From contig NZ_CP010945.1 of assembly GCF_000293885.2 (NCBI RefSeq), forward strand, positions 5,290,001-5,354,000: DNA of 64,000 nt. The letters run 5' to 3'. Positions 12,540 through 54,375 of this stretch are shown here, in pieces. The stretch comes from Pseudomonas fluorescens NCIMB 11764 (lineage in GTDB: Bacteria; Pseudomonadota; Gammaproteobacteria; Pseudomonadales; Pseudomonadaceae). Made by a program: the position numbers and the translations under genes. Numbering within the stretch: position 1 is the stretch's first letter; each line of letters begins with the position of its first letter. A model generated the notes under the pieces. The model was not told the DNA's origin. It was given only the letters and a program-made list of their open reading frames with translations, and made no database searches.

Positions 12540-12571
12540 TGCCGTTGCTGAAGCGGTCAGTGAACACCAAA

Positions 12572-12763: not shown

Positions 12764-12810
12764 ATTTTTGCTGTGTGATTTTGAATAAAAAGAGAATTGG
12801 AGTTGTACCG

Positions 12811-33950: not shown

Positions 33951-35081
33951 ATGGATATCCTGAATTTACTGACCAACAAGGCACCGCCGCTGACCAGCAC
34001 CCTCAGCGCTGACGGGCAACTGATCAGCCTGTCCCCCAGCCTGAGCGATCAACTGGGCTATGACCCCGAAGCGCTGCTGAACCAGCCGATCGAGCGCATC
34101 TTCAGTGTCGAATCGTTGCGTGCCGTGCAGTCGTTGTTTGCCAATCCGCCCGCCGATGAGCAAGTGCACAGCCTGGAACTGACCCTGATTCGCCACAACG
34201 GCGGCTTGCTGCCCGTGGTCGCTTGCGGATTGCTCGAATGGCGCTCGGTGCACCCGGCGCGCCTGCATCTGCTGAAAATTCCTCTCGGCGCACTGGGTCA
34301 TCGATTGCGGGAAATGCACAACGCCAATGAAGTCATGAGCCAGATGCTGCAAAGCGCCAAGGTCGCGTACTGGTGCATCGAGTTCGCCGAGGCGGTGGAC
34401 ATCAACACCTCCCCCGACGAAATCGTGCGCCAGGTGTTCGAAAACGACTCCCATTGGCGACTGTGCAATCGCGCCATGGCCGACGTGTATGAAATGCCTT
34501 CGGATGTCGATTTCAACCAGCAACCGGTGCGCCTGTACTGGCCGCGCAGCCCGGCCAACGAAGAGTTTGTGCGGCGCCTGATCGAAGCCGGTTTCCACGT
34601 GGACTGCGCGCTGTCGGTGGATCGCCGGCACGACGGCTCGCCGGCCTATGTCGAGAATGATGTGCGCGCGACCATCGTCAACGGCCATCTGTTGCGCATG
34701 TGGGGCAGCATTCGCGATGTCAGTCAGGAACTGCGCATGCAGCACGACGCCGAGCAGCGCATCGACGCCTTGCGCCGGGTGTTCGATGCGGTGCCTGACG
34801 CGGTGCTGGTGATCGATGAGCACTTGCAACCGCAATGGCGCAACGCAGCGTTCGAAGAAACCTTTGGCATCACCCATGGCGACGGCATCGCTCGGCTGCT
34901 GCTGGACAACGCCCTGCCCGAACGCACCTGGCACAGCCTGCCCTTGCCCGACTTGAGCGGACGCCAGCTGAATTTCAATGTGCATTGCTCGCGCATCCTG
35001 ATTCGTGAAGGCGTGGCCTGGCGGGTGGCGGTGCTTCGCGAAAGTCAGGGCGTGCGCCGTGCCGAAGAGTTGCACCCATGA
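33951..35081 (+). CDS. PAS-domain sensor protein without output domain
   Basis: This 376-residue soluble protein has a PAS-like domain at about residues 15-110 (LSPSLSDQLGYDPEALLNQP). The middle has HNANEVMSQMLQSAKVAYWC, and a further PAS domain lies at about 265-370 (VFDAVPDAVLVIDEHLQPQW). No kinase, GGDEF, EAL or DNA-binding domain is visible. The last codons overlap the start of the sigma-54 activator gene (ATGA), so the two are made together. I infer that it is a ligand or redox sensor that acts on that activator by protein contact. Confidence 0.75.
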   Translation: MDILNLLTNKAPPLTSTLSADGQLISLSPSLSDQLGYDPEALLNQPIERIFSVESLRAVQSLFANPPADEQVHSLELTLIRHNGGLLPVVACGLLEWRSVHPARLHLLKIPLGALGHRLREMHNANEVMSQMLQSAKVAYWCIEFAEAVDINTSPDEIVRQVFENDSHWRLCNRAMADVYEMPSDVDFNQQPVRLYWPRSPANEEFVRRLIEAGFHVDCALSVDRRHDGSPAYVENDVRATIVNGHLLRMWGSIRDVSQELRMQHDAEQRIDALRRVFDAVPDAVLVIDEHLQPQWRNAAFEETFGITHGDGIARLLLDNALPERTWHSLPLPDLSGRQLNFNVHCSRILIREGVAWRVAVLRESQGVRRAEELHP

Positions 35082-36505
35082 AAGACAAGAACCTGCCACC
35101 CACGCTGCAAATGGGCATGCGCTCTTCGGTCAACGTCAGCAGTGAAGTGCTGGGCGCCTTGCTGGAGACTCCCGCACTGCACGCCTTGCTCGACAGCTTC
35201 AGTGACGCGCTGATCGTGACGGACGGTGAAGGCCGGGTGCGCTTTCTCAACCTCGCCGCCGAGCGGGTCAACCGGGTGTCCCGCCAGCAAGCCAGCGGTT
35301 TGTCCGACAGTGAGTTTTACCAACGCTCGGCGCTGAATTACGACGATTTTCAGGCGGCGCTGAATCGCGGCGGCAATAGCGCGCTTACCCGTTCGCGGGA
35401 AGGTCGGGTGCTGCTCAGCAGCACCCACGCCATTCCCACCGGGGCCTACGAAAAACCGTTCAGGATGCTGACCCAGAAAGACTTCGACGGCAGCCAGCCG
35501 CAGCGTCGCGCCTCACTGGGCAACCGGCCGGTGGAAACCCAGGGCCTGCGCGATCCACAGGACAACGCATTGCATTTGTCGCCGCAGCTCTCGAGCATCG
35601 CCGATACCGGCGTGCGCGCATTCCGGCGGCGTGCGCGGTTGCTGCTGCTGGGCGAACCGGGCGTCGGCAAGACCGCCATCGCACGGCACATCCACCGCGC
35701 CGCCGGTTGGGGTGATCGGCCATTCATTCACGTCAACTGCGGGAGCATCCCGGAGAGCCTGTTCGAATCGGAGATGTTCGGCTACGAACGCGGCGCCTTC
35801 ACTGGCGCGTTGCAGGGTGGCAAGCAAGGTTATATCGAGGCCGCTTCGGGCGGGACGCTGTTCCTTGACGAGATCGGTGAAATCCCGTTGCACGTGCAGG
35901 CCAAACTGCTGAAGTTTCTTGAAGACAGCACCATCCAGTCGGTCGGTTCACCGTTGAGCAAAACGGTGCAGGTGCAGGTCATTGCCGCCACCAACAAAGA
36001 CTTGCGTCACTTGGTGAGCATCGGTGAGTTTCGCGCCGACCTCTACTATCGCCTGGCGGTCCTGCCGGTAGAAATTCCACCGCTGCGCCAGCACCGGGAT
36101 GACTTGCCGTTCCTCATCGACATTCTGCTGAGTCGCATCAATGGCGACCGCGAGCCGTCACTGAGCCTGTCCGCCGGTTGCCGCAAGCGGCTGTTGGGTT
36201 ACGACTACCCCGGCAACATCCGCGAACTGGTGAACATCTTCGAACGGCTGGCGGTGCTCGCTGACGATGAAGCCCAGGAGCATCATCTGCCGGCTGAACT
36301 GCTCGACCCGGTGCGCCCTCAGGAGCGGGCAAAACCAGTGATGGCCGACGAAGAGGAGACGGAGCAAAACCTCAAGCTGCAGGTTCAGCATTTCGAACGC
36401 CAGGTCATTCTCAGGGCCGTGCATGTGTGCGGCAGCAAACGTAAAGCGGCGGTGCACCTGGGGATCGACATCGGGACGTTGATTCGCAAGCTCCAGCGCG
36501 ACTGA
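35078..36505 (+). CDS. Sigma-54-dependent transcriptional activator
   Basis: This 475-residue enhancer-binding protein has an N-terminal PAS domain (about 30-130), the AAA+ domain with Walker A GEPGVGKT (192-199), the sigma-54 contact loop GAFTGA (239-244) and Walker B GGTLFLDEIGE (258-268). A Fis-type helix-turn-helix ends the protein (GSKRKAAVHLGIDIGTLIRK). It has no receiver domain, so the signal probably comes through PAS domains, its own and those of the coupled protein upstream. The oxidase operon that follows has a matching sigma-54 promoter, making it the most likely target. It resembles activators next to amine-catabolic genes. Confidence 0.88.
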   Translation: MKDKNLPPTLQMGMRSSVNVSSEVLGALLETPALHALLDSFSDALIVTDGEGRVRFLNLAAERVNRVSRQQASGLSDSEFYQRSALNYDDFQAALNRGGNSALTRSREGRVLLSSTHAIPTGAYEKPFRMLTQKDFDGSQPQRRASLGNRPVETQGLRDPQDNALHLSPQLSSIADTGVRAFRRRARLLLLGEPGVGKTAIARHIHRAAGWGDRPFIHVNCGSIPESLFESEMFGYERGAFTGALQGGKQGYIEAASGGTLFLDEIGEIPLHVQAKLLKFLEDSTIQSVGSPLSKTVQVQVIAATNKDLRHLVSIGEFRADLYYRLAVLPVEIPPLRQHRDDLPFLIDILLSRINGDREPSLSLSAGCRKRLLGYDYPGNIRELVNIFERLAVLADDEAQEHHLPAELLDPVRPQERAKPVMADEEETEQNLKLQVQHFERQVILRAVHVCGSKRKAAVHLGIDIGTLIRKLQRD

Positions 36506-36571
36506 AACCCGCAATGTCAGTGAGCACGCCGCTCCTACAGGGTTGCGTGTTGTTCCGGATGACACCTAACC

Positions 36572-36584
36572 GCTGCAAAAACGC
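36572..36584. promoter_or_regulatory. Candidate activator half-site upstream of the oxidase operon
   Basis: GCTGCAAAAACGC resembles GCTGCATAAATGC at 33786-33798 in the palindrome before the PAS gene (11 of 13 positions by eye). It ends 79 bases ahead of the sigma-54 GG, against 75 for the other copy. The mirror half is not clear here. Confidence 0.35.
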
Positions 36585-36661
36585 ATACATACCTGGTTAC
36601 TTTTGCCTGTCACTCACGCCCTGAAATCAAACAAATTCTTTATTTTCAATAAGTTGAATAA

Positions 36662-36678
36662 CTGGCACGACCTGTGCT
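36662..36678 (+). promoter_or_regulatory. Sigma-54 promoter of the N-demethylase operon
   Basis: CTGGCACGACCTGTGCT carries a perfect -24 box TGGCACG and a GTGC -12 box (one change from TTGC), with GG (36664-36665) and GC (36676-36677) 10 bases apart. The start would be near 36689, about 75 bases ahead of the first ATG. Confidence 0.75.
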
Positions 36679-36755
36679 CCTGCTACCTGCAACCCACCAT
36701 CGTTGGGCTTTGCATCAGGGCCGGCTTTCATCTAGCCGCGCCGGTAGCCAGGAGG

Positions 36756-36766
36756 AATAATAAAAA
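36756..36766 (+). promoter_or_regulatory. A-rich Hfq/Crc-type motif at the dmmA ribosome binding site
   Basis: AATAATAAAAA lies between GGAGG (36751-36755) and the ATG at 36766. It fits the AANAANAA pattern through which Hfq with Crc blocks translation of catabolic mRNAs in Pseudomonas. The position is ideal for such control; binding is inferred. Confidence 0.45.
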
Positions 36767-37368
36767 TGTTGATCACCGGGATCAAAAGCCGACCGGTCTA
36801 TGACCGGTTGCAACCGCTGCCGGGAGGTATCCGGCACATCATTGCCGGGCAAGGCAGCGGCGGTCGCGCCATGTTGCGCTTACTGGAAGAAATGGCTGGC
36901 CTGGACCGGCCGATTACCTTGCTCTACTCCCTGGAATCCTTTTCCGGCCAGGACTTCCTCACGCAGTTGCAGCAGCACCCCGAGCACCCGCTGCATGTGC
37001 ATGCAACCAACCAATCGTTGATCGACGCGCTCAAAACCCTGCTCGGCGAAGCGCGCATGGGCACCCGCCTCTATCTCGCCGGTTCGGAAAGTTTCCTCGG
37101 CAGCGCCATGCAAGTGGCCACGCATTTCGACATGAACCGCGACGAAGTGCTGCGCGAGCACTCCGGCACGCTGGTTCGCCGCGTCTGGTGCGTGCATTGC
37201 GACACCTACACCGAAAACGTGACCCAACGCGTCTATGACTGCCCCGGCTGTGGCCTGACGCTGGTGGTGCGCGATCACTATTCCCGGCGGTTGGCGGCCT
37301 TTCAGGCGGTCAAGGCCGATGCTGAAGTCCCGGGTGAATTGCCCGAAGCCGAGGAGCTCGACACATGA
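36766..37368 (+). CDS. dmmA: DmmA-like subunit of a dimethylamine-type monooxygenase
   Basis: This 200-residue protein starts MLITGIKSRPVYDRL after an excellent AGGAGG site. The middle (ITLLYSLESFSGQDFLTQL, then GTRLYLAGSESFLGSAMQVA) looks like an alpha/beta ferredoxin-reductase-type half-domain. A zinc or iron ribbon follows, with Cys142, Cys145, Cys159 and Cys162 (WCVHCDTY, YDCPGCG). This is the pattern of the DmmA family of dimethylamine monooxygenase components. It probably takes part in electron transfer or assembly with the reductase and heme subunit encoded next. Its stop overlaps the next start (ATGA). Confidence 0.75.
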   Translation: MLITGIKSRPVYDRLQPLPGGIRHIIAGQGSGGRAMLRLLEEMAGLDRPITLLYSLESFSGQDFLTQLQQHPEHPLHVHATNQSLIDALKTLLGEARMGTRLYLAGSESFLGSAMQVATHFDMNRDEVLREHSGTLVRRVWCVHCDTYTENVTQRVYDCPGCGLTLVVRDHYSRRLAAFQAVKADAEVPGELPEAEELDT

Positions 37369-38333
37369 GCCAGAACAATGGCACGTTGAACCTGCGCGTC
37401 GCCCGGATCGAAGCGGTGACCCCGGAAATCAAGCGCTTCACCCTGGTGTCGCCGACCGGCGCGCACTTGCCGGCCTTCTCCGGCGGCAGCCACGTCGTGG
37501 TGCTGATCGCCCATCAGCAGAACACCTTGCGCAACCCGTATTCGCTGCTGAGTTCGCCTTACGACACCAGCAGTTATCAGATTGCCGTGCGCCGGGTGGA
37601 CGCCGGGCGCGGTGGCTCGGCGTCCCTGCATGACAACGTCAGTGAAGGTGATCTGATCGAGGTCACCCCGCCGGTCAACCTGTTCCCGCTGATCAAACAG
37701 GCACGCCTGCACCTGTTCATCGCCGGTGGCGTCGGCATCACGCCGGTGATTTCCCAGCTGGAAGAACTGCGCCTGAGCAAAGTGCCGTTCGAGCTGCATT
37801 ACGCGGTGCGCGGTGCAGAACATGCGCAGCTCGGCCAGGAGTTGCAGGCCACTTACGGCGAGCAGGTTCACCTGTACCGCAAAGGCATTGAATCGCGCAT
37901 GGAGATCGGCCGGGTGCTCGCCGACCGCCCGTTGGGCAGTCACGTCTATGTGTGCGGCCCGGACAGCATGATCGACGCCACGCTGGCCTGCGCCCGCGAC
38001 CTTGGCTGGACTGACAGTCACGTGCACTTCGAACGTTTCCTCGAACAGAGCAGCGGCGGCGAAGCCTTCAGTTTCACCCTCGGCCGCAGCGGCGCAACGA
38101 TTGAAGTCTCGCCCGACCAGACCATGCTCGAAGCGGTCGAAGCCGCCGGCTACAGCATGCCGTACCTGTGTCGCGGCGGAGCCTGCGGGCATTGCGAAAC
38201 CGCAGTGCTGGAACTCGACGGCGAGCTGCTGCACAGCGATGACTGGCTGTCCGACGAAGACAAGGTCGGCTGCAAGAAAATCATGCCCTGCGTATCCCGC
38301 GCCAAGTGCAATCGCCTGGTCATCGACCTCTGA
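37365..38333 (+). CDS. PDR/VanB-type flavin and 2Fe-2S reductase of the N-demethylase
   Basis: This 322-residue protein has an FMN-binding barrel (RNPYS at 56-60), a NAD(P)-binding fold (GGVGITP at 121-127, CGPD at 197-200) and a C-terminal plant-type ferredoxin domain with Cys269, Cys274, Cys277 and Cys309. That order is the phthalate dioxygenase reductase/VanB architecture. It should pass electrons from NAD(P)H to the heme subunit encoded 15 bases downstream. It is translationally coupled to dmmA. Confidence 0.85.
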   Translation: MSQNNGTLNLRVARIEAVTPEIKRFTLVSPTGAHLPAFSGGSHVVVLIAHQQNTLRNPYSLLSSPYDTSSYQIAVRRVDAGRGGSASLHDNVSEGDLIEVTPPVNLFPLIKQARLHLFIAGGVGITPVISQLEELRLSKVPFELHYAVRGAEHAQLGQELQATYGEQVHLYRKGIESRMEIGRVLADRPLGSHVYVCGPDSMIDATLACARDLGWTDSHVHFERFLEQSSGGEAFSFTLGRSGATIEVSPDQTMLEAVEAAGYSMPYLCRGGACGHCETAVLELDGELLHSDDWLSDEDKVGCKKIMPCVSRAKCNRLVIDL

Positions 38334-38348
38334 TCGACGGAGAACAAA

Positions 38349-39371
38349 ATGAATATCCAATTCAATCCCGACGAAACCTATCGCGACGACTACACCTTCG
38401 CCAACAGCCCGGAAACCATCGCCCGCGCGCCCTTCCCGTTCCCCGATGACGACTACATGTATTCGATGAACCTCGAACCGCATGTGTCGGTGGGCGACGG
38501 TGCGTTTCGCGCCGCATTCGATATCGACGAACACTACATCAGCGAATGCCGGGACCGCGCGATCACCCTTGAGAAAGATCCTGGCATGCACTACGTCTCG
38601 GCGCCGCACATGATGGAAGCGCAATGGGATTTGCTGGAGCTGATCATGGAGTCCTACGCCCGGGACTATCCGCAGTACTTCAGCCTGGCGCGTGAAGGTC
38701 GGCAGTGGCACTGGACCAACCGCCTGCTGGACATCGACGACCATTTCACCTTCGGCGACCCGGCCACCCTGCCCTACGAGCCGATGGAGTACGTGACCCG
38801 CCAGGCCCAGGGCGATTGGGTGTTGCAGGAAGAACGCGACGGCACGCTGTACTGGGGCGCGGGGATCGCCACCCAGCGCGCGGATTACTCGCTGCGTTTC
38901 AACCTCGGCATGAGCTGGGAGGAGTTCCACGGGCCGGTGCCGCTGGTCAAGGAAATCGGCATGCTCGACCGCGCCTTGAAGTTCCTGCTGCGCCTGCGCA
39001 CTGGCCATCCGGTGCGTCGCCTGAACTGGTCGCTGACCGTTAACCCGCGCCTCGAAGTCTCGGCCGAAAGCCTGCCGGAATGGGCGCCGGACCGGACCAT
39101 CGTCACCGCAGAAAACGCCGGCAAACTGGTTTACCTGCGCATCGAGTTGCAACCGCTGCATCGCCTGCCGCGCAGTAACGCCATCGTCTTTCCGATCCGC
39201 ACGTACCTGCTCAGCCTCGAAGACATCGCGACCAACCCGGCGTGGGCCCGACGCATGCACCGGGTGCTGCGGGACTTGAATCAGCAATTGGTTGATTACA
39301 AGGGTTTCAGCCGTTATCGCGATGCTGCCGTTGAATGGCTGTCGCAGTACGACGACGAAACCAAAGCCTGA
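38349..39371 (+). CDS. Heme-dependent oxidative N-demethylase, alpha subunit (HODM, DUF3445)
   Basis: This 340-residue protein matches the HODM_asu-like family. The known enzyme from P. mendocina removes a methyl group from dimethylamine by heme oxygen chemistry. Family-like segments are HYVSAPHMMEAQWDLLELIM, RQWHWTNRLLDIDDHFTFGD, NLGMSWEEFHGPVP and LYWGAGIATQRADYSLRFN. GGAGAAC precedes ATG 38349. With the DmmA-like and reductase genes it makes a complete enzyme. The following genes (APC permease, PatD-like dehydrogenase) suggest the substrate here may be a longer amine rather than dimethylamine. That is inference. Confidence 0.8.
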   Translation: MNIQFNPDETYRDDYTFANSPETIARAPFPFPDDDYMYSMNLEPHVSVGDGAFRAAFDIDEHYISECRDRAITLEKDPGMHYVSAPHMMEAQWDLLELIMESYARDYPQYFSLAREGRQWHWTNRLLDIDDHFTFGDPATLPYEPMEYVTRQAQGDWVLQEERDGTLYWGAGIATQRADYSLRFNLGMSWEEFHGPVPLVKEIGMLDRALKFLLRLRTGHPVRRLNWSLTVNPRLEVSAESLPEWAPDRTIVTAENAGKLVYLRIELQPLHRLPRSNAIVFPIRTYLLSLEDIATNPAWARRMHRVLRDLNQQLVDYKGFSRYRDAAVEWLSQYDDETKA

Positions 39372-39382
39372 CGCGATCCCCC

Positions 39383-39434
39383 GTGGGAGCCAGCCTGCTG
39401 GCGATGGCGGTCTTGAGGTCGCTATGGCTCCCAC
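39383..39434. repeat. REP palindrome
   Basis: GTGGGAGCCA (39383-39392) and TGGCTCCCAC (39425-39434) face each other across 32 bases containing GCCTGCTGGCGATGGCGG. It separates the oxidase genes from the permease gene and has no terminator T-run. Confidence 0.75.
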
Positions 39435-39543
39435 AGGTTCGAGGTGTCCGTGAGACCCCCATACAACAAAAAGATCGACAAGAACATCGGCCGGCCAACC
39501 GGCCAACCCAGCAAACACCTGCCATTGATAATGAGGAAATAAA

Positions 39544-41082
39544 ATGAGTGGCTCATCCAACACGCGTGCAAGCGTCAGCGCCGATCAGGACGCGGAACAA
39601 CTCCGCGCCCTCGGCTACAGTTCGGACTTCAACCGCAGCATGAGCCTGTGGGAGAACTTCTCACTGGGCTTTACCTACCTGTCGCCGGTCGTCGGCGTCT
39701 ACACCCTGTTCGGTTTGTGCCTGGCCGCCGGCGGCCCGCCGATGTTCTGGTCCTACCTGCTGATCGGCGCCGGGCAATTGCTGGTGTGCCTGGTCTTCGG
39801 TGAAATCGTCTCGCAGTTCCCGATTTCCGGGGGTGTCTATCCGTGGGCCCGTCGCCTGGTGGGCAAGCGCTGGGCGTGGATGGTCGGCTGGGTGTATGCC
39901 TGGGCGTTGTGCGCCACCATCGCTGGCGTCGCCGTGGGTGCCGGGCCGTACCTGGCGATCATGCTGGGTTTCAATCCCGGTCCCGAAGCCAACATCTACA
40001 TTGCCCTGACGATCATCCTGCTCTCGACCGCCCTCAACCTGGTGGGCACCAAACTGCTGGCGCGGGTGGCCATGTTCGGCTTTCTCTGCGAGCTGGTAGG
40101 GGCGATTCTGGTCGGCGGCTACCTGCTGATCTTCGAGCGTCATCAGCCATTCAGCGTGCTGTTCGACACCTTCAACCTTGAGGTCAACGGCTCGTACTTG
40201 CCGGCGTTCCTCGCGGCCTCGTTGGCGGGTCTGTTCCAGTACTACGGCTTCGAGGCCTGCGGCGATGTCGCCGAAGAAACCCCGAACCCGGGCAAGCGCA
40301 TTCCGAAGGCGATGCGCATGACCATTTACATCGGTGGCGCGGCGGCGATGTTCGCCTGCCTGGCGCTGATTCTCTCGGTGCCGGACATGGCCAAGGTCCT
40401 GGCCGGTGAAGACACCGATCCGGTGGCCACCATTCTCGCCAATGCTTTCGGTCCGGTAGGTTCGCGACTGGTGATGGCGGTGGTGATGGTGTCGTTCATC
40501 TCTTGCGTGCTGAGCCTGCAAGCGGCGGCCAGTCGTCTGCTGTTCGCCTATGCCCGTGACGAAATGATCATCGGTAGCTCGCTGCTCAAACGCCTCTCGG
40601 GCAACCATGTGCCGTCGTTCGCGTTGCTGATCAGCGGCCTGGTGCCCGCGGCGATTGTCTGCCTGGGCATGTTCATGGCTGATGCCGTGGCGACCATCGT
40701 CGGATTCGCGGCGATTGGTATCTACGTGGCCTTCCAGCTGATCGTCGTCGCCGCGTTGATCGCCCGCGCCAAGGGCTGGCGCCCGAACGGGCAGTTCACG
40801 CTGGGTGCGTGGGGCTTGTGGGTGAACCTCGCTGCGTTGATTTATGGCGTCTGCGCCATCGTCAACATGGTCTGGCCGCGCTCGCCGGATGCGCCGTGGT
40901 ACATCAACTTTTCGATGATCCTGACCACGCTGGTGGTAATGGGCGCTGGGCTGGTTTACATGCTGCTGGGCAAGCCGTACGACAAAGGCACGGCACCGGC
41001 GGGGGATGCGTGGAAGTTCTCGAAACCGCAGGTTAAGGATACTGACCTGTCCGGTGCTTCGATCAATCGATCGACGATCTGA
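39544..41082 (+). CDS. APC-family amino acid/amine permease
   Basis: This 512-residue transporter has about 12 helices and APC-superfamily motifs: SLGFTYLSPVVGVYTLFG in helix 1, QFPISGGVYPWARRLVGKRW after helix 2 and YYGFEACGDVAEETPNPGKR in the helix 6-7 loop. The latter resembles the GABA/ethanolamine/choline branch. GAGGAAATAAA precedes the ATG. It lies 172 bases after the oxidase gene with no terminator between, so it may be in the same sigma-54 operon and import the amine substrate. Confidence 0.85.
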   Translation: MSGSSNTRASVSADQDAEQLRALGYSSDFNRSMSLWENFSLGFTYLSPVVGVYTLFGLCLAAGGPPMFWSYLLIGAGQLLVCLVFGEIVSQFPISGGVYPWARRLVGKRWAWMVGWVYAWALCATIAGVAVGAGPYLAIMLGFNPGPEANIYIALTIILLSTALNLVGTKLLARVAMFGFLCELVGAILVGGYLLIFERHQPFSVLFDTFNLEVNGSYLPAFLAASLAGLFQYYGFEACGDVAEETPNPGKRIPKAMRMTIYIGGAAAMFACLALILSVPDMAKVLAGEDTDPVATILANAFGPVGSRLVMAVVMVSFISCVLSLQAAASRLLFAYARDEMIIGSSLLKRLSGNHVPSFALLISGLVPAAIVCLGMFMADAVATIVGFAAIGIYVAFQLIVVAALIARAKGWRPNGQFTLGAWGLWVNLAALIYGVCAIVNMVWPRSPDAPWYINFSMILTTLVVMGAGLVYMLLGKPYDKGTAPAGDAWKFSKPQVKDTDLSGASINRSTI

Positions 41083-41114
41083 CAACGACTGCCCCGAAAG
41101 GAACCGGATCCTGT

Positions 41115-41136
41115 GGGAGCGGGCTTGCCCGCTCCC
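41115..41136. repeat. REP palindrome
   Basis: GGGAGCGGGC and GCCCGCTCCC form a perfect 10-base stem with a 2-base loop between the permease and the aldehyde dehydrogenase genes. Confidence 0.8.
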
Positions 41137-41187
41137 GAACGGATTCGGTTCCGACAGAAAAACAATAGATTCGAAGAGGACAACGCC

Positions 41188-42612
41188 ATGCAAACCCAAC
41201 TCTTGATCAACGGCCAACTGCTCGACGGCGAAGGCCCCGCCCAACCGGTGTTCAACCCGGCCCTCGGTCGCGTGCTGGTGGAAATCAACGAAGCCAGCGA
41301 AGCCCAGGTCGATGCCGCCGTGCGCGCCGCCGACGCCGCGTTCGACAGCTGGTCGCAGACTCCGCCCAAGGAGCGCTCGCTGCTGCTGCTCAAACTCGCC
41401 GACGCCATCGAAGCCCACGGCGAAGAGCTGGCCAAACTCGAATCCGACAACTGCGGCAAACCCTACAGCGCCGCGTTGAACGACGAGATTCCGGCGATTG
41501 CCGACGTGTTCCGTTTCTTCGCCGGCGCCAGCCGTTGCATGAGCGGCTCGGCCGGCGGTGAATACCTGGCCGGCCACACCTCGATGATCCGCCGCGATCC
41601 GGTGGGCGTGATCGCCTCCATCGCGCCGTGGAACTACCCGCTGATGATGGTCGCCTGGAAAATCGCCCCGGCCCTCGCCGCCGGTAATACCGTGGTGCTC
41701 AAGCCGTCGGAGCAAACCCCGCTGACCGCGCTGCGCCTGGCGCAACTGGCGTCGGAAATCTTCCCGGCCGGCGTACTCAACCTGGTGTTCGGCCGTGGTC
41801 CTTCCGTCGGCAGCCCATTGGTCACCCACCCGAAAGTGCGCATGGTGTCGCTGACGGGCTCCATCGCCACCGGTTCGAACATCATTTCCAGCACTGCCGA
41901 CAGCGTCAAGCGCATGCACATGGAACTGGGCGGCAAGGCCCCGGTGATCATCTTCGACGACGCCGACATCGACGCCGCCGTGGAAGGCATTCGCACCTTC
42001 GGTTTCTACAACGCTGGCCAGGACTGCACCGCGGCCTGCCGCATCTATGCGCAGGAAGGCATCTACGACAGATTCGTCGAGAAGCTCGGCGCGGCGGTCA
42101 GCAGCATCAAGTACGGCCTGCAGGATGACCCGTCGACCGAACTCGGGCCGCTGATCACCGCGCAGCACCGCGACCGGGTGGCCGGTTTTGTCGAACGCGC
42201 CATGGCGCAATCGCACATCCGTTTGATCACCGGCGGCAAGGCGGTTGAAGGCAATGGTTTCTTCTTCGAGCCGACGGTGCTGGCCGACGCGCTGCAGGAC
42301 GACGAAATCGTCCGTCGCGAAGTGTTCGGGCCGGTGGTGTCGGTGACCAAATTCAGCGACGAAGCGCAGGTGCTGGGCTGGGCCAACGATTCGGATTACG
42401 GCCTGGCGTCGTCGGTGTGGACCGCCGACGTCGGTCGCGCGCATCGCCTGTCGGCGCGCTTGCAGTACGGCTGCACCTGGGTGAACACGCACTTCATGCT
42501 GGTCAGCGAAATGCCCCACGGCGGTCAGAAATTGTCCGGCTACGGGAAGGACATGTCGATGTACGGGCTGGAGGACTACACCGTTGTGCGGCATGTGATG
42601 TTCAAGCACTAA
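41188..42612 (+). CDS. patD: 4-aminobutyraldehyde dehydrogenase
   Basis: This 474-residue enzyme has the same length as E. coli PatD (YdcW) and closely matches the sequence I recall for it (e.g. [25 protein letters not shown], ending [14 protein letters not shown]). It oxidises 4-aminobutyraldehyde to GABA with NAD. Catalytic features are Asn149 (PWNYP), Glu246 (MELGGK) and Cys280 ([10 protein letters not shown]). ATG 41188 follows GAAGAGGA. The extra 25 codons upstream are REP sequence. Its presence right after the N-demethylase and permease genes suggests that the pathway there releases an amino-aldehyde. Confidence 0.85.
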
Positions 42613-42616
42613 AAGC

Positions 42617-42684
42617 TTCGCGAGCAAGCCGGCTTCCACATTTGACCGCATGCCCCTGTGGGAGCGGGCTTGCCCGCGATGGCC
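42617..42684. repeat. REP pair
   Basis: A partial left copy (TTCGCGAGCAAGCCGGCTTC) and an opposite right copy (CTGTGGGAGCGGGCTTGCCC) follow the patD stop within a few bases. It marks the end of the amine cluster. Confidence 0.6.
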
Positions 42685-42945: not shown

Positions 42946-43063
42946 TGTTGCGTTCCTCCGGGTAGTTAAGTCGGTCAACGCGTACCGCAGTCCCTATTTT
43001 TAGTACAAAAAACCGCTGAAAGGCCTGGTGTACAAGGGTGCAAGACAGCGGCGCAATGCCACC

Positions 43064-43113
43064 TATACTACAAGCCACCGCCCCCTCGGGGTCTGCACTC
43101 CCAACAATAAAAA
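43064..43113 (+). promoter_or_regulatory. Leader of the LctP gene with -10-like box and A-rich Hfq/Crc motif
   Basis: TATACT at 43064-43069 could be a -10 box, although its -35 partner is weak. AACAATAAAAA at 43103-43113 ends 2 bases before the AGAGG ribosome binding site (43116-43120) and fits the AANAANAA motif of Hfq/Crc catabolite repression. Both calls rest on pattern only. Confidence 0.35.
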
Positions 43114-43126
43114 GCAGAGGTGGAAC

Positions 43127-44890
43127 ATGGTCTGGCAGCAAATCTACGATCCGTTCGGCAACCCGGTCATTTCAACCATCATGGCAGCAGTGCCGGTCGT
43201 GGTGATGCTGGCAGCCCTGGCGTTCTTCCACATCAAAGCACATTTGGCGGCATTGCTCGCCCTCGCCTCCGCCCTGGTCATCGCGATCTTCGCCTTCGGC
43301 ATGCCGGCGAACATGGCAGGCTCGGCCGCCCTGTATGGCGCCGCCAACGGTTTGCTGCCAATTGGCTGGATTGTGCTCAACATCATCTTCCTGCACCGAC
43401 TGACCACCGAGAACGGCTCGTTCAAAGTGCTGCAAGACTCGCTGGCGCGCATCACCGATGATCGACGCCTGCAGTTGTTGCTGATTGCCTTCTGCTTCGG
43501 CGCCTTTTTCGAAGGCGCTGCCGGTTTCGGTACACCGGTGGCGGTGACCGGGGCGATTCTGATCGGTCTGGGCTTCTCGCCGCTGGCCGCGTCCGGCCTG
43601 GCGTTGATCGCCAACACCGCGCCCGTGGCCTTTGGCGCGCTGGGTACGCCGATCATTACGCTGGCCAAGGTCACCGGGCTGGATGAAATGGAGCTGTCGA
43701 TGATGGTCGGGCGGCAATTGCCGTTTTTCTCGGTGATCGTGCCGTTCTGGTTGATCTGGGCCTTCGCCGGCTGGCGCAAGATGCTGGAAATCTGGCCGGC
43801 CATCCTGGTGGCCGGCGTCAGTTTCGCCGTGCCGCAATTCCTGGTGTCCAACTACCACGGGCCAATGCTGGTGGACGTGGTTGCCGCGCTGATTTCCATG
43901 GCCTGCCTGACCGGTTTTCTCCGGGTGTGGAAACCCGCGACGGTGCACACCTCCGCTGCGCTGTCCGGGCGTGTCGATAATTCCAGAATCGCCGACGAGC
44001 ATGACGAAAAACCCGTTGCCAGTACGACCTTTGCCAGCGACGCCAAGCCTGCTGTCATGCGCGCGTGGATGCCGTGGATCATCCTCACGGTGTTCGTTTT
44101 CGCCTGGGGCACCCAGGGCTTCAAAAACATGTTCGATACCCGTCCGGCGATCGATCCGGTCACACACTCCGCCAAGCTCGACCCTCAAGGCAAACCGCTG
44201 CGCGAAGCGAACCCGATCTTTGCTCCGGTCATCACCTTCGGCACGATCCACCAGCAAATCGAAAAAGTCCCGCCGGTGGTGCCTGCGCCTAAAACCGAAG
44301 ACGCGGTCTACAAATTCACCTGGTTGACCAGCACCGGCAGCGGCATCTTGCTGGCGGCGATCCTGGGCGGGCTGCTGATGGGCTATTCCATCCCGCAACT
44401 GATCAAGCAGTACCTGCGAACCATCTGGGTCGTGCGTTACTCGCTGATTACCATCGTGGCGATGCTCGCCCTCGGCTTCCTCACCCGTTATTCGGGGCTG
44501 GACGCCACCATGGGCCTGGCGTTCGCGGCGACGGGGATTTTCTACCCCATGTTCGGCACCCTGCTCGGCTGGCTTGGCGTGGCGCTGACGGGTTCGGACA
44601 CGGCGTCTAACGTGCTGTTTGGCGGCTTGCAGAAAGTGACTGCCGAGCAACTGGGTCTTAGTCCGGTGTTGATGGCGGCGGCCAACAGTTCCGGTGGGGT
44701 CATGGGCAAGATGGTTGATGCGCAGTCGATCGTGGTGGCCTCGACCGCCACGCGTTGGTACGGCCATGAAGGGGAGATTCTGCGTTATGTGTTCTTCCAT
44801 TCCATCATTCTGGCGATTCTGGTGGGTGGGTTGGTGACGTTGCAGGCTTATGTGTCGCCGTTTACGCAGATGGTTGTGGGTGGGCATTAA
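43127..44890 (+). CDS. L-lactate/glycolate permease, LctP family
   Basis: This 587-residue membrane protein has about 13-14 helices and the family hallmarks FGAFFEGAAGFGTPVAVTGA, NTAPVAFGALGTPIITLA and LTGSDTASNVLFGGLQK. It is a proton symporter for L-lactate, D-lactate or glycolate. ATG 43127 follows AGAGG. The glycolate oxidase genes glcDEFG begin 646 bases downstream on the same strand. That fits a GlcA-like glycolate role, though the lactate dehydrogenase genes usual for LldP may lie outside the window. A loop insert (about residues 345-400) is longer than in LldP of E. coli. Confidence 0.88.
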   Translation: MVWQQIYDPFGNPVISTIMAAVPVVVMLAALAFFHIKAHLAALLALASALVIAIFAFGMPANMAGSAALYGAANGLLPIGWIVLNIIFLHRLTTENGSFKVLQDSLARITDDRRLQLLLIAFCFGAFFEGAAGFGTPVAVTGAILIGLGFSPLAASGLALIANTAPVAFGALGTPIITLAKVTGLDEMELSMMVGRQLPFFSVIVPFWLIWAFAGWRKMLEIWPAILVAGVSFAVPQFLVSNYHGPMLVDVVAALISMACLTGFLRVWKPATVHTSAALSGRVDNSRIADEHDEKPVASTTFASDAKPAVMRAWMPWIILTVFVFAWGTQGFKNMFDTRPAIDPVTHSAKLDPQGKPLREANPIFAPVITFGTIHQQIEKVPPVVPAPKTEDAVYKFTWLTSTGSGILLAAILGGLLMGYSIPQLIKQYLRTIWVVRYSLITIVAMLALGFLTRYSGLDATMGLAFAATGIFYPMFGTLLGWLGVALTGSDTASNVLFGGLQKVTAEQLGLSPVLMAAANSSGGVMGKMVDAQSIVVASTATRWYGHEGEILRYVFFHSIILAILVGGLVTLQAYVSPFTQMVVGGH

Positions 44891-45536: not shown

Positions 45537-47036
45537 ATGAACATTCTCTACGATGAACGCGTTGATGGTGTGCTACCGGACGTCGACAAGGCCGCCTTGC
45601 TGCGAGCTCTGCAAACCCGCTTGCCGAAACTGGAAGTGCTGCATCAACAGGAAGAGTTGAAACCGTACGAATGCGACGGCCTCTCGGCTTATCGCACCAC
45701 GCCCCTGCTGGTGGTGTTGCCACGCCACCTCGACGAGGTGCAAGGCGTGCTTCGGCTCTGTCATGAGCTGCAGGTCCCGGTGGTCGCCCGCGGCGCCGGC
45801 ACCGGTTTGTCCGGCGGCGCATTGCCGCTGGAAAAAGGCGTGCTGCTGGTGATGGCGCGTTTCAACAACATTTTGCACATCGACCCCGCCGCCCGTACCG
45901 CACGGGTCCAGCCGGGTGTACGCAACCTGGCGATTTCCCAGGCAGCGGCACCGTTCGGCCTGTACTACGCGCCCGACCCGTCTTCGCAAATCGCCTGTTC
46001 GATCGGCGGCAATGTCGCTGAAAACGCCGGCGGCGTGCATTGCCTGAAATACGGTCTGACCGTGCACAACCTGCTCAAGGTCGACATCCTTACCGTCGAC
46101 GGCGAACACCTGACGTTGGGCTCCGATGCCCTCGACTCGCCCGGCTTCGACCTGCTGGCGCTGTTCACCGGTTCCGAAGGCATGCTCGGGGTGATCACCG
46201 AAGTCACGGTCAAACTGCTGCCCAAACCGCAGACTGCGAAGGTGCTGCTGGCGGCGTTCGATTCCGTCGAAAAAGCCGGTCGCGCGGTCGGTGACATCAT
46301 CGCCGCCGGCATCATTCCCGGTGGCCTGGAAATGATGGACAACCTGGCGATTCGCGCCGCCGAAGACTTTATCCACGCCGGTTACCCAGTGGACGCCGAA
46401 GCGATTCTGCTGTGCGAACTCGACGGGGTCGAAGCCGATGTCCACGACGACTGCGACCGCGTGCGCCAGGTGTTGGAAAACGCGGGCGCCACCGAAGTGC
46501 GTCAGGCCAGGGATGAAGCCGAGCGCGTGCGTTTCTGGGCCGGGCGCAAGAATGCCTTCCCGGCCGTGGGTCGCCTTTCGCCGGATTACTACTGCATGGA
46601 CGGCACGATCCCGCGCCGCGAGTTGCCCGGTGTGCTGCGTGCGATTGCGGCGCTATCCGCCGAGTATGACTTGCGCGTCGCCAACGTTTTCCATGCCGGT
46701 GACGGCAACATGCACCCGCTGATTCTGTTCGACGCCAATCAACCGGGCGAGCTCGACCGCGCCGAAGCCCTGGGCGGCAAGATCCTCGAATTGTGCGTGA
46801 AAGTCGGCGGCAGCATTACCGGTGAACACGGCGTGGGCCGCGAGAAAATCAATCAGATGTGCGCGCAGTTCAACAGCGATGAACTGACCGTATTCCATGC
46901 CGTCAAGGCCGCGTTCGATCCGAGTGGCTTGCTCAATCCGGGCAAGAACATTCCGACCCTGCACCGCTGCGCCGAGTTTGGCGCCATGCACGTGCACATG
47001 GGTCAGCTGCCCTTCCCTGAGCTGGAGCGTTTCTGA
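45537..47036 (+). CDS. glcD: Glycolate oxidase subunit GlcD (FAD-linked)
   Basis: This 499-residue flavoprotein oxidises glycolate (and D-lactate) to glyoxylate. The FAD-binding PCMH domain has VARGAGTGLSGGALPL and CSIGGNVAENAGGVHCLKYG. The C-terminal FAD-oxidase domain has FHAGDGNMHP and ITGEHGVGREK. Length equals E. coli GlcD. GGAG lies 15 bases ahead of the ATG, a loose spacing. The TGA overlaps the glcE ATG by one base. The regulator glcC, often adjacent, is not in this window. Confidence 0.93.
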   Translation: MNILYDERVDGVLPDVDKAALLRALQTRLPKLEVLHQQEELKPYECDGLSAYRTTPLLVVLPRHLDEVQGVLRLCHELQVPVVARGAGTGLSGGALPLEKGVLLVMARFNNILHIDPAARTARVQPGVRNLAISQAAAPFGLYYAPDPSSQIACSIGGNVAENAGGVHCLKYGLTVHNLLKVDILTVDGEHLTLGSDALDSPGFDLLALFTGSEGMLGVITEVTVKLLPKPQTAKVLLAAFDSVEKAGRAVGDIIAAGIIPGGLEMMDNLAIRAAEDFIHAGYPVDAEAILLCELDGVEADVHDDCDRVRQVLENAGATEVRQARDEAERVRFWAGRKNAFPAVGRLSPDYYCMDGTIPRRELPGVLRAIAALSAEYDLRVANVFHAGDGNMHPLILFDANQPGELDRAEALGGKILELCVKVGGSITGEHGVGREKINQMCAQFNSDELTVFHAVKAAFDPSGLLNPGKNIPTLHRCAEFGAMHVHMGQLPFPELERF

Positions 47037-51346: not shown

Positions 51347-51823
51347 TTACTCGTGTCCTTTGTCAATCAAAGTGAAGACCAATGTTTTCACTTCCATCGC
51401 AGCGGTGTATTGAAATACAACTTTTTTGCCGGGATGAACCGCCGGATCAAGGGGATAGGCTTCCCATCCGCCGGTCTGACCCATCGGTTGAGGCATTTTG
51501 ATGGGGCCTCTTGATTCCATTGGTTCGCCGAAGAGTGCGTGGACATCGGACTGGGTCAATGCCAGCTTATATGGCGTTGGGAGCTCACCCTTGTACTCGA
51601 CGGTCGAGGGGGTCGTTTTGATGAGTGTTACAAAGACAGTTTCAAGCTGTTTACTCTCAGCCCAGAAGGACAGTGCGATGCCGACCTCGGGATTCAGATG
51701 CAACTTATCACGGCCTGGATACAGCTCCTTTAGCGGTTGATCGGGAACGATGCCAAGTGCGATCAAGTCGTTATAACTTTGGCCTAGGTTATCGATCCAC
51801 GCTTCGATATTTGTATTGGTCAT
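51347..51823 (-). CDS. DUF6392 family protein, probable bacteriocin immunity protein
   Basis: This 158-residue protein reads [20 protein letters not shown], then GIVPDQPLKELYPGRDKL, IALSFWAESKQLETVFVTLI and GPIKMPQPMGQTGGWEAYPL. It matches what I recall of DUF6392, small proteins found next to Pseudomonas pyocins. The start shares bases with the pyocin stop (TGATG) and AAGGATGG lies just ahead, the usual coupling of toxin and immunity. I infer that it neutralises the new C-terminal domain of the pyocin. ATG 51832 is a possible longer start. Confidence 0.7.
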   Translation of the reverse strand: MTNTNIEAWIDNLGQSYNDLIALGIVPDQPLKELYPGRDKLHLNPEVGIALSFWAESKQLETVFVTLIKTTPSTVEYKGELPTPYKLALTQSDVHALFGEPMESRGPIKMPQPMGQTGGWEAYPLDPAVHPGKKVVFQYTAAMEVKTLVFTLIDKGHE

Positions 51824-54375
51824 CAGTACCATCCTTGATCGTTGCTAAGTTTATGTAGCAAATCTCGTCCCAGCTCAATCTCCGATTCCGAAAAGCCAGA
51901 CTCAATCAAACCTGGCTTTAACGCATCAAAATTCGTATCCACAGCCATTCGCAAGTCGAACGCATCGGCAGCCTGTTTCCGTGCGTTGTTACGTCCTCCG
52001 TAAGTTTCACTATATTTTCGATGCACTGCTGTGGGGATTGCGATACTCGGTGCTTTTCTTAAAAAGTCGGCCAATTCCTCAGGACCGATGTCCGGCCAGG
52101 AATCAACGATGTACGCCTCCAACGCCCTCCGCGATGGAATATGGTCAATATCCAACCCATCTCCCCTGCTCCGACCACTGAGTTCGTTATATGGCCCTAC
52201 TTCCAGCGGCTCAACCGGCGGACCAACAAAAACCAGTCCCGGCGAAGGCAGTTCCATATCCCCCGGAAACCCGGGAATACTCGCACCAATCTCCCCTTCA
52301 TCAACCGCCGGAAACGTCTCGTTTTGCGGTAGGACCGGGATGACCGGGTTGCCGGGATAAACCGCGGGCGGAATGGACGGGGTTGGTGATGTCGTCGAAC
52401 CCAGTTGTTCACTGCCCGGCGGCACCAACGGTGTCCAGGTGCCAACCGGTGGAATCGGCCAGGGCACAACCGTCGGTACGATGCCCAACCATCCTTCGGT
52501 AGTTTGCGGTGTCTTGATGCTGATTTTGTCGAGGTTGAACGGGTCGGCCCAGAACTCCGGCCGCTCCTGATACCGCAGTTCGAATTCTCGGTTCGTACCC
52601 ACCCATGTGCTTTTCGGCGCGTACGGGGCGAAGCCTTGTTCGACTCGTTTTTTGTTCACCTCATCGAGTGGACGGGTCAACGCCGGGTGTTCACCGAGCG
52701 TTCGCCACAGGGCTTCGTCGAACGCCTCGAAAGACTTGAATTCCTTGCCCCGGAACTGATCGCCAATCTGACTCGGGATCGCTGCGCCGGCCGTCTGGCT
52801 GACGCCCTTCCACCAATCAGCTGTCGGCGGTTGACCGGTTCCAGTGACAACGCCGGAACCCATGGCCGGAACGTTGAAGGACAGGTAGGTCGGTGGCAGA
52901 CCAGGCACGCAGACAATGCAATCCTGAATGCGCCAATCAACACCCGCCGGGATGTCCTGAATCTGCGGTTCCGTGACAGTCAGACGAGTCTCGCTGGCCA
53001 AGGTCGCGTGAGGCGCGGCGTCAGGAGTGAACTGCACATACCTGGCCGGTGATCCAGGAACCTCGGCGGTGTAGATGCCTGTTCGCGGGTCGAGCACAGC
53101 ATTCACGACCGGGACGCGAGAATCGATTTCGCCCCCCGTCGCGCCGACAACGATCGCGGTTCCTTCCGGTGTGGCTACAGGTTTGAGCCGGTATTCCACC
53201 TCCACCGAACCGCCTGCGTCAGCAGCAGTCCGCATCTCTTGAGGGTCATGAAGTTCCAGGGCTTGAGCCGGAACGGCGACGGCCTCGGACAATCGTTGTC
53301 GTTGCTCGGAGGTCAGCTCGCCGTTGCCCAGTGCGCTGGGATAGGCCATCCCCACCACGAAAATTGCGGCTTGCCCTACCGTGAGCGTCGCGGTGACGGA
53401 GCCCAGTTCGGTGATTGCTCGCGAAACGGCAATGACCAGTTTGTCGGCATCAACCCATTCCCCGCCGTGGCTGGGCAATACCCCGGCAGACAGCGCTGAC
53501 GATGTGGCAGGTAATTGGAAGGTGTTGGCCTGTTTGATCTGTTCGAGGCGAGCATCCTCATCAACCTGTTGCTTGAACCGAATGCGCGCATCACGCTGCT
53601 CGGCGTGCTGCCGATGACGCTCCCAGAGTGCCTCCCGCTCACGCCAGATGATGGTCTGCTCGGCATGACGAGTGGCCAACGCATTGGATTTATCGTTGAG
53701 CCCGTCGATCTGCGCTGGCAGCAATCGGGCTTCATGAGCCGCGTTGTAGGCGCTCTCCCAGAGCTGATGACCACCCGTCAGCGCATCACCGAACTGCCCG
53801 AGTCGGGCCAGGTAGTCGTCGGCGGTTCGCGTGAGCGGATCGTGCCCGTCGAATGACCGGGCAAGCGCATTTTTTTCGTTGAGCTCCGCGGTTTTTAGGG
53901 CGATCAACCCGTCGATTTCGTTCTTGTCTTTGGTGATGAGATAAAGCTGCCAGCGCTCACTCGAGTCGCCGGCATGGTGCCGTTTTGCCGCCGAGATTTC
54001 GTTATCAAGTGACGAAGTGAGTTGCTCGGCTCGGGCGGTAAAACGTTGGTCTATTTCAGCTCTGGTTACGTTTTGAAGCTGGGTGAATTGTGCGAGTAGT
54101 TGATTGCGCGCATAGATGCGAGCCTGCTCTCGGGCTTGAGCAGCGGCCGCCACTGCCTGTGCTTCCTGCGCTGCCTTGTTCCGGTGGTACTCTTCCTTGG
54201 CAAGCCGTCGGGCTTCTTTCGTGCTTTTGCTGGGACCACTGGTTACGCCTGAGGCTCCTACGCGGTTGCCTCCAGAACCTCCACCACCGCCCCAGCCACC
54301 ACCGCCGCCCGAAGCAGGCGGCCCGGACCTGATGACGACGTCTCCTGACGTACCATCGTTGAATCGTTGTGCCAT
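51823..54375 (-). CDS. S-type pyocin with degenerate HNH domain and extra C-terminal domain
   Basis: This 850-residue bacteriocin starts at ATG 54375 after AAGGAGAG. Residues 20-40 are Gly-rich. Residues 55-290 are long helices (receptor/translocation part). Residues about 300-500 are a pyocin-S domain. Residues 530-632 align with the colicin E9-type DNase ([40 protein letters not shown]). The HNH residues are gone: ELHHD has become ELRYQ (601-602), and the later Asn and two His are replaced ([15 protein letters not shown]). A Pro-rich linker (633-725) leads to a new domain (726-850) with [15 protein letters not shown] at 738-752, likely the real toxic module. No LexA or PrtN box was found upstream. 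Confidence 0.82.

What the first reader, a model, noticed from the sequence alone, without database searches (positions are those of the whole stretch)
33951..42612. Heme-dependent N-demethylase system joined to an amine permease, a PatD-type dehydrogenase and a two-protein PAS/sigma-54 switch
The sequence shows, in one direction, a PAS-only protein, a sigma-54 activator, a DmmA-like ribbon protein, a flavin/2Fe-2S reductase, HODM alpha, an APC permease and a 474-residue aldehyde dehydrogenase very like PatD. The known HODM substrate, dimethylamine, yields formaldehyde and methylamine. A 4-aminobutyraldehyde dehydrogenase and a large amine permease would not be needed for that, and no methylamine genes (GMAS, NMG) are in the window. 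I infer a heme oxidase that dealkylates a larger amine, such as an N-methylated or N-alkylated putrescine or a polyamine, giving an amino-aldehyde that PatD turns into GABA. This would be a third polyamine-type route beside the two glutamylated ones here.
Basis: partly seen in the sequence, partly recalled or inferred. Interest (0 to 1): 0.8.

Follow-up and report, generated by a model that had tools for sequence, protein, structure and literature searches.

The report
Heme oxidase operon for larger amines
A Pseudomonas carries a heme enzyme related to the one that strips methyl groups from dimethylamine, but its branch of the family lacks the formaldehyde-handling partner gene and often sits beside an amino-aldehyde dehydrogenase, so it probably breaks down a larger amine by a route not yet described.

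Summary
In detail: seven genes as described. The larger-amine idea is supported; the substrate is not shown. HODM splits into two clades. Group I holds the P. mendocina enzyme (5LTE): 26 of 27 loci carry a DmmD-like folate gene, none PatD. Group II, ours: no dmmD in 86 loci, PatD in 48. In this genus dmmD is in 49 of 50 genomes with group I and 0 of 30 with group II alone; a second GXGXG gene, taken as N-methylglutamate synthase, in 48 of 50 against 6 of 30, not in this genome. Seven genomes hold two HODMs, always one of each group. The window's PatD is a 99% DNA copy of the PatD in this genome's YdcSTUV-type operon; in two species the HODM genes sit directly behind that operon. A sigma-54 promoter precedes dmmA in 41 of 41 loci with the activator. 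Against: PatD is patchy in our subclade (11 of 30). Best reading: a three-component heme N-dealkylase that cleaves a secondary di- or polyamine and hands PatD an amino-aldehyde. Inference; no assay exists.

The parts
33951..35081 (+). PAS-only protein (376 aa), no kinase or output domain found; likely sensor partner of the activator
   Evidence: PAS families at 19-91 and 274-324, no other domain; no solved relative by sequence; beside the activator in the clade A loci
35078..36505 (+). Sigma-54 activator: PAS, AAA+ with GAFTGA, Fis-type HTH; ATGA overlap with the PAS gene
   Evidence: PF00158 E 3.6e-57, PF25601, PF18024, PAS_4; motif read in the translation
36572..36608 (+). Candidate enhancer site: GCTGCAAAAACGC (36572-36584) and TTTTGCCT (36601-36608), about 55-90 bp upstream of the -24 element
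   Evidence: conserved in a 10-locus alignment of clade A; positions; function inferred
36663..36678 (+). Sigma-54 (-24/-12) promoter TGGCACGACCTGTGCT, 103 bp before dmmA
   Evidence: score 9 or more of 12 in 41 of 41 loci with the activator, best score in a stretch of the HODM gene of the same loci 8
36766..37368 (+). DmmA-like subunit with C-terminal CxxC...CxxC ribbon
   Evidence: PF22290 E 3.9e-34, PF22289 E 2.2e-20, NF041259 over cut-off
37365..38333 (+). Reductase: FAD_binding_6 / NAD_binding_1 / Fer2
38349..39371 (+). HODM alpha, group II (heme-PAS oxidase)
   Evidence: PF11927; 5LTE E 3.4e-133; model pLDDT 88.3, TM-score 0.94 to 5lte and 5lth; group II of the tree
39544..41082 (+). APC permease, paralogue of the permease behind the housekeeping YdcSTUV-type PatD operon
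   Evidence: PF13520; 74% identical to the L116 copy
41188..42612 (+). PatD-type aminobutyraldehyde dehydrogenase, recent copy of the gene at G000:C1:2433897-2435318

Best explanation
The operon encodes a member of a separate branch (group II) of the heme-PAS N-demethylase family. Electrons pass from NAD(P)H through the reductase (flavin, 2Fe-2S), with the DmmA subunit, to the heme of HODM alpha, which uses O2 to oxidise the carbon next to a secondary amine; the bond then hydrolyses. Where group I makes formaldehyde and works beside the folate protein DmmD, group II makes an amino-aldehyde (most likely 4-aminobutanal, perhaps 3-aminopropanal) and a smaller amine from a di- or polyamine such as spermidine, homospermidine or N-methylputrescine. 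PatD oxidises the aldehyde to GABA (or beta-alanine); where PatD is not beside the operon, the housekeeping copy can serve. The APC permease (clade A, actinobacteria), an MFS carrier (clade B) or an ABC system imports the amine. In clade A a PAS sensor and a sigma-54 activator switch on the -24/-12 promoter before dmmA. Shown here: gene content, the two clades, absence of DmmD, PatD linkage, promoter sequence. Inferred: the reaction, the substrate, the ligand of the sensor, what the permease carries.
For: (1) Two clades, SH-aLRT 99 on either side of the split, and no identity to our HODM between 58% and 71% among 88 matches in 398 genomes of the genus. (2) A DmmD-like gene, separate from Tdm, in 26 of 27 group I loci (21 at 56% identity or more, 5 at 40-42%), 0 of 86 in group II; PatD (55% or more) 0/27 against 48/86; our type of APC (45% or more) 0/27 against 51/86. 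(3) By whole genome: DmmD 49/50 against 0/30; second PF01493 gene over the cut-off 48/50 against 6/30, none in this genome. (4) Seven of 81 HODM genomes hold two copies, always one of each group. (5) PatD is joined in different ways: a 79-82% form upstream of dmmA in clade B (28 of 29 loci, which include L059 and L060, where it belongs to a complete YdcSTUV-type operon); a 65% form in the betaproteobacterium L051; and in the Pseudomonas loci of clade A a copy close to the housekeeping gene: 99.2, 99.1, 98.9 and 91.8% DNA identity within four genomes, each higher than to the adjacent copies of other species. (6) The housekeeping PatD closes an operon whose binding protein passes the YdcS equivalog cut-off (786 against 725). 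(7) The Cache sensor protein of clade B and actinobacteria aligns with PctA/PctB and lacks the arginine two places before the WY/WF pair in 29 of 29 readable sequences of 33, a key position of amino-acid sensors that amine sensors do not keep (PMC10104139, passages).
Against: No assay or growth datum was found for any group II member. DmmABC without DmmD still demethylates dimethylamine in E. coli (PMC5520151, passages), so loss of DmmD does not exclude dimethylamine. PatD is beside the operon in only 11 of 30 clade A loci with enough DNA and in none of the 7 actinobacterial loci at 55% or more. Six of 30 group-II-only genomes have the second PF01493 gene. Three group I loci also have an APC-family permease. 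The 13 positions fixed differently in the two groups do not point one way: six have smaller side chains in group II (R81H, D170G, W180Y, W193F, F206L, T228S), five larger (V40M, E54R, D161E, G246A, V265I), and none could be placed in the pocket because no coordinates were at hand. The Cache argument does not apply to this operon, which has a PAS protein instead. PatD sits between REP-like repeats and could have been copied in passively.
Confidence: 0.5

Rival explanations
1. Ordinary dimethylamine demethylase: group II is a variant of DmmABC that still makes formaldehyde and methylamine; permease and PatD are unrelated neighbours.
For: 56% identity to the P. mendocina enzyme, 80 positions 97% or more identical over both groups; same three subunits; DmmABC works without DmmD in E. 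coli (PMC5520151); APC-family permeases occur in group I loci too.
Against: DmmD absent from 86 of 86 loci and from 30 of 30 group-II-only genomes; second PF01493 gene absent from 24 of 30, this genome included; both groups kept side by side in seven genomes; no Tmm, Tdm, PurU or FolD at 40% or more in any of the 86 loci.
Confidence: 0.14
2. True N-demethylase of an N-methylated diamine or amino acid (for example N-methylputrescine to putrescine plus formaldehyde); PatD acts later in the route.
For: Keeps the known chemistry of the family (recalled); PatD would still be useful for the diamine that is left.
Against: The DmmD-like gene, found in 26 of 27 group I loci, is missing in all 86 group II loci; putrescine would then need a transaminase or oxidase, and none is among the genes of the cluster.
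Confidence: 0.17
3. PatD is a passenger: REP-like repeats copied it next to the HODM operon, and the aldehyde made by HODM is not an amino-aldehyde.
For: REP-like copies at 41113-41129 and 42658-42674 on both sides of PatD; PatD near-identical (98.9-99.2% DNA) to the housekeeping gene in three of four genomes and patchy in clade A.
Against: PatD is also linked in clade B (28 of 29) as a 79-82% form, in L051 as a 65% form and in L059/L060 through the YdcSTUV-type operon; linked to none of 27 group I loci.
Confidence: 0.13
4. An ethanolamine-type substrate (for example diethanolamine), whose glycolaldehyde would feed the glycolate genes that follow the operon.
For: An LctP/GlcA-family permease (43028-44890) and GlcD (45537-47036) follow directly.
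Against: These genes follow only 10 of 30 clade A loci with enough DNA; in six HODM-less relatives the 13 kb or so before GlcD hold none of the HODM-operon genes, and in one of them the likeness to the window begins at about 42695, right behind PatD: a neighbour by position.
Confidence: 0.03

Closest known systems
HODM of Pseudomonas mendocina (PDB 5LTE/5LTH/5LTI)
   Same: Full-length HODM alpha, 56% identical, TM-score 0.94; same reductase and DmmA-type partners in group I loci
   Different: Other side of the main split; group II has no DmmD; 13 positions fixed differently, among them R81H, D170G, W180Y, W193F, F206L, G246A
DmmDABC dimethylamine monooxygenase of Ruegeria pomeroyi (PMC5520151, passages)
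   Same: Three structural subunits
   Different: No dmmD, tmm or tdm nearby; permease, PatD and sigma-54 control instead
E. coli YdcSTUV-PatD (YdcW)
   Same: PatD is a copy of the gene in this genome's YdcSTUV-type operon
   Different: In E. coli PatD is fed by the transaminase PatA (PMC9397018, passages); here it stands beside a heme oxidase
Spermidine dehydrogenase SpdH of P. aeruginosa
   Same: Precedent for cutting spermidine to 1,3-diaminopropane and 4-aminobutanal (PMC9397018, passages); it too is called heme-binding in a reference title there
   Different: Another protein family (recalled); HODM needs reductase and DmmA and has a PAS fold
NifL-NifA
   Same: A PAS protein encoded directly before a sigma-54 activator; the NifA model is among the activator's hits, below its cut-off
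   Different: No kinase-like domain in the PAS protein

Membership tests
HODM alpha family (PF11927) | PF11927 over cut-off, near full length | tested here: met
   228.8 bits against 25, profile 9-272 of 273
HODM alpha family (PF11927) | PAS fold like 5LTE | tested here: met
   AlphaFold2 model, TM-score 0.94 to 5lte
HODM alpha family (PF11927) | Binds heme | not testable with these tools
   80 near-invariant positions shared with group I, no spectrum
Dimethylamine monooxygenase system (DmmDABC) | DmmA, reductase and HODM genes together | tested here: met
Dimethylamine monooxygenase system (DmmDABC) | DmmD (GcvT-type) in the genome | tested here: not met
   0 of 30 group-II-only genomes, this one included; 49 of 50 with group I. 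Only about 30% GcvT paralogues here
Dimethylamine monooxygenase system (DmmDABC) | N-methylglutamate route for methylamine (second PF01493 gene) | tested here: not met
   absent here; 6 of 30 against 48 of 50 over the cut-off; the link of PF01493 to MgsB is recalled
Dimethylamine monooxygenase system (DmmDABC) | Oxidises dimethylamine | not testable with these tools
   needs an assay
PatD (aminobutyraldehyde dehydrogenase) | PRK13473 subfamily and TIGR03374 equivalog cut-offs | tested here: inconclusive
   835.9 over 615 met; 882.2 under 909.3 missed narrowly; best solved relatives 1wnb and 6c43
Sigma-54 activator | AAA+ domain with GAFTGA, C-terminal HTH, -24/-12 target | tested here: met
   that this activator acts on this promoter is inferred
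NifL | PAS domains plus kinase-like domain | tested here: not met
   PAS families only

The most novel reading that the evidence does not exclude
Group II HODMs are an uncharacterised family of heme-PAS polyamine oxidases found in Pseudomonas and actinobacteria: a sixth bacterial entry to polyamine breakdown, in which an O2-using PAS-fold enzyme cuts the secondary amine of spermidine or homospermidine to 4-aminobutanal plus a diamine, without glutamylation, transamination, acetylation or a flavin oxidase, with its own sensors and a PatD gene kept nearly identical to the housekeeping copy.
Probability: 0.32. Interest if true: 0.8.

Novelty: new variant of a known kind. Interest (0 to 1): 0.62.

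Why it matters
From memory, HODM is the first PAS domain shown to be an enzyme and is described as specific for dimethylamine. A sister clade with different gene partners would show that the scaffold has moved to another substrate, and would correct annotations: at least two group II relatives (P0038, P0045) carry the source name 'dimethylamine monooxygenase subunit A'. It would also add a route to the five bacterial polyamine routes listed in a 2022 review (PMC9397018, passages). The prediction is testable with one deletion strain and one enzyme assay.

Tried and rejected
Rejected: the glycolate link. Dropped on recheck: my first reading that the fixed changes are mostly to smaller side chains; recounted they are six smaller, five larger and two alike, so they are no evidence for a larger pocket. 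Weakened on recheck: the permease as an argument, since L097, L098 and L101 of group I carry another APC-family permease, PF13520, with no real BLASTP likeness between ours and that of L101. For these two reasons the confidence went from a first 0.52 to 0.50. Checked on recheck: in none of the 26 group I loci is the DmmD-like hit a part of Tdm; five of them (L152, L153, L156, L160, L164) are only 40-42% like the DmmD query, and in L156 the gene is about 5.5 kb from HODM. Sigma-70 and terminator scans gave nothing clear against shuffles (4 against a mean of 2.2, 4 against 8.6). The PAS protein has no solved relative by sequence, so its ligand stays open. The permease has only distant solved relatives. 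Papers: the 2016 HODM paper is not held, so its content is recalled. Full-text searches with HODM and dimethylamine monooxygenase names and with polyamine terms listed no title that joins HODM to polyamines; one search matched 4,909 papers of which 15 were listed, all without either HODM term, and one search listed 25 of 107, so this is no proof of absence.

Limits of the counts: one search kept the best 80 of 108 matches, so group II is sampled by likeness to our HODM; group I loci come. In one search, 31 of 398 genomes matched; context was fetched for 20 of them, all group I; the three group II ones (G172, G176, G257) were not looked at. 'Clade A' means 40 loci with the activator plus L023, L025 and L036, whose contigs start too late to show it; L051, which falls in clade A on the tree, has another layout and is not counted there. 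G800 (a partial match, 54%) was left out. G832, the one group I genome without DmmD and without a second PF01493 match, is in 620 contigs; G727 has a second PF01493 match only under the cut-off (27 bits). In one search, 4 of 33 Cache proteins did not fit the search pattern and were not read. Gene calls are from a home-made caller, so start sites there are rough. The tree is a quick one (SH-aLRT only, 101 of 138 representatives). Related loci are not independent; no test corrected for that.


Full report
What is there. The window is part of a 7.0 Mb single-contig genome, a Pseudomonas by its nearest named loci. The seven genes lie on the + strand as described. PAS and activator overlap by ATGA, as do DmmA and reductase. 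HODM alpha is 56% identical to 5LTE, and its model (pLDDT 88.3) fits 5lte and 5lth with TM-score 0.94. It is the only HODM of the genome.

Two kinds of HODM. A tree of 101 sequences splits into a set of 35 with 5LTE (group I) and a set of 66 with the window (group II), each with SH-aLRT 99. In 398 genomes of the genus, 81 have HODM at E 1e-60 with 88 matches: 18 at 89-100% identity to ours (clade A), 19 at 71-73% (clade B), 51 at 52-58% (group I), nothing between 58 and 71%. Seven genomes hold two matches (G009, G575, G577, G585, G687, G773, G825), each time one of either group. Keeping both argues for different tasks.

Different partners. I compared 27 group I loci (7 from relatives, 20 from a phylum-wide sample) with 86 group II loci. 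DmmD, the GcvT-type folate protein (PF01571): 26 of 27 against 0 of 86. In all 26 it is a gene apart from Tdm; 21 are 56% or more identical to the query and 5 are 40-42%. Tmm 17, Tdm 13, PurU 7, FolD 6 of 27, all 0 of 86. PatD at 55% identity or more: 0 against 48. Our type of APC at 45% or more: 0 against 51; three group I loci have another APC-family permease. Over whole genomes, DmmD is in 49 of 50 with group I and 0 of 30 with group II alone. A second, short GXGXG (PF01493) gene, which I take from memory to be the N-methylglutamate synthase subunit that many methylamine users need, is over the cut-off in 48 of 50 and in 6 of 30 (G716, G685, G584, G749, G526, G045), not in this genome. A caution: DmmABC alone demethylates dimethylamine in E. 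coli (PMC5520151, passages), so these losses speak about pathway context, not directly about the enzyme.

Layouts within group II. Clade A: PAS, sigma-54 activator, DmmA, reductase, HODM, APC (APC in 42 of 43 loci; the contig of the other, L037, ends before the place), then PatD in 11 of 30 loci with at least 5 kb behind the permease. Eight other contigs end within 500 bases after APC, where a repeated PatD would break an assembly, so 11 of 30 may be low. Clade B: PatD, DmmA, reductase, HODM, MFS carrier (PatD 28 of 29, MFS 29 of 29), with a GntR/FCD regulator and a Cache protein (26 of 29 each; domains) on the other strand. L059 and L060, counted in clade B: a whole YdcSTUV-type operon with both its PatD-type genes lies directly before dmmA. 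L051 (Lacisediminimonas; in clade A on the tree but without PAS, activator or APC): a peptide-type ABC transporter (read by eye), gamma-glutamyltranspeptidase (PF01019), PatD, then the HODM genes. Actinobacteria (7 loci): APC, GntR and Cache proteins (7 of 7 each), no PatD; a succinate-semialdehyde-dehydrogenase-like gene in L090 and L095 (cluster; L095 scanned, under the model's cut-off).

Where PatD and the permease come from. This genome has a second gene for the identical PatD protein at 2.43 Mb. It closes an operon LysR, PatD-type dehydrogenase (62%), binding protein, ATPase, two permeases, PatD, APC (L116), whose binding protein passes the YdcS equivalog cut-off. The window's permease is 74% identical to the one there. 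Within each of four genomes the two PatD copies are 99.2, 99.1, 98.9 and 91.8% identical in DNA; the window's copy is at most 92.5% identical to the adjacent copies of other species. The copies are homogenised or copied afresh. REP-like repeats flank PatD in the window. So either the same dehydrogenase activity is wanted in both places, or the repeats copy it passively.

Control. TGGCACGACCTGTGCT at 36663-36678 fits a sigma-54 promoter, 103 bp before dmmA. Such a site, with score 9 or more of 12, precedes dmmA in 41 of 41 loci with the activator; the best score in a 320-base stretch of the HODM gene of the same loci is 8. Conserved half-sites GCTGCAAAAACGC and TTTTGCCT upstream may bind the activator. 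Of the loci without the activator, the seven clade B rows printed show TGGCAT...TGCT about 94-101 bp before dmmA. The PAS protein is likely the sensor of the activator, in the manner of NifL and NifA but without a kinase-like domain; inferred.

Clues to the substrate. PatD makes GABA from 4-aminobutanal (PMC9397018, passages). A heme-PAS N-dealkylase could make 4-aminobutanal by cutting a secondary amine such as spermidine; SpdH of P. aeruginosa is described as doing just that (same source). The Cache protein of clade B aligns with the amino-acid sensors PctA and PctB. It keeps WY/WF, GPYxD and the final D, but has M, A, L or S in place of the arginine two before W in 29 of 29 readable sequences; this is R126 of PctA, a key position of amino-acid sensors that amine sensors do not keep (PMC10104139, passages); that it binds the carboxylate is recalled. 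These proteins show no strongly hydrophobic segment (highest 19-residue mean 1.7 anywhere, 1.22 in the first 40 residues), so they look cytosolic. The 13 positions fixed differently in the two HODM groups change size both ways and could not be placed in the pocket, so they are left out of the argument.

Verdict. I put 0.50 on an amino-aldehyde-yielding N-dealkylase of a secondary di- or polyamine, 0.17 on N-demethylation of a larger N-methyl amine, 0.14 on plain dimethylamine, 0.13 on PatD as passenger, 0.03 on an ethanolamine-type substrate.

Noticed in passing
41113-41129, 42623-42639, 42658-42674: REP-like repeats (GTGGGAGCGGGCTTGCC, up to 3 mismatches) on both sides of PatD; 5 matches in the window against 0.37 expected. 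They may drive the copying of PatD.
   Followed up: partly
41188-42612 and L116:3895-5319: Two PatD copies with identical protein and 99.2% DNA identity; the same pattern, weaker in one, in three other genomes looks like concerted evolution.
   Followed up: partly
L071:4889-5638 and relatives: A dCache_1-type domain as a free-standing, apparently cytosolic protein beside a GntR regulator; Cache domains are usually outside the membrane.
   Followed up: partly
L051:3-8298: Lacisediminimonas: ABC transporter genes (peptide type by eye), gamma-glutamyltranspeptidase and PatD before the HODM genes, hinting at a gamma-glutamyl amine as outside substrate.
   Followed up: no
L052: Shimwellia pseudoproteus (Enterobacteriaceae) carries the clade A operon, its HODM 88% identical to ours, a sign of horizontal transfer.
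   Followed up: no
L073:9992-12155: A HODM and MFS pair without DmmA, reductase or PatD of our type nearby, possibly a remnant or using other partners.
   Followed up: no
51823-54375 (-): S-type pyocin with a DNase domain (PF21431, PF06958).
   Followed up: no
6977-8353 (-) and 61351-62700 (-): Two glutamine-synthetase-type genes near FAD oxidoreductase genes; a gamma-glutamyl-GABA hydrolase-like gene at 8625 and polyamine-type ABC genes at 9542-13908.
   Followed up: no
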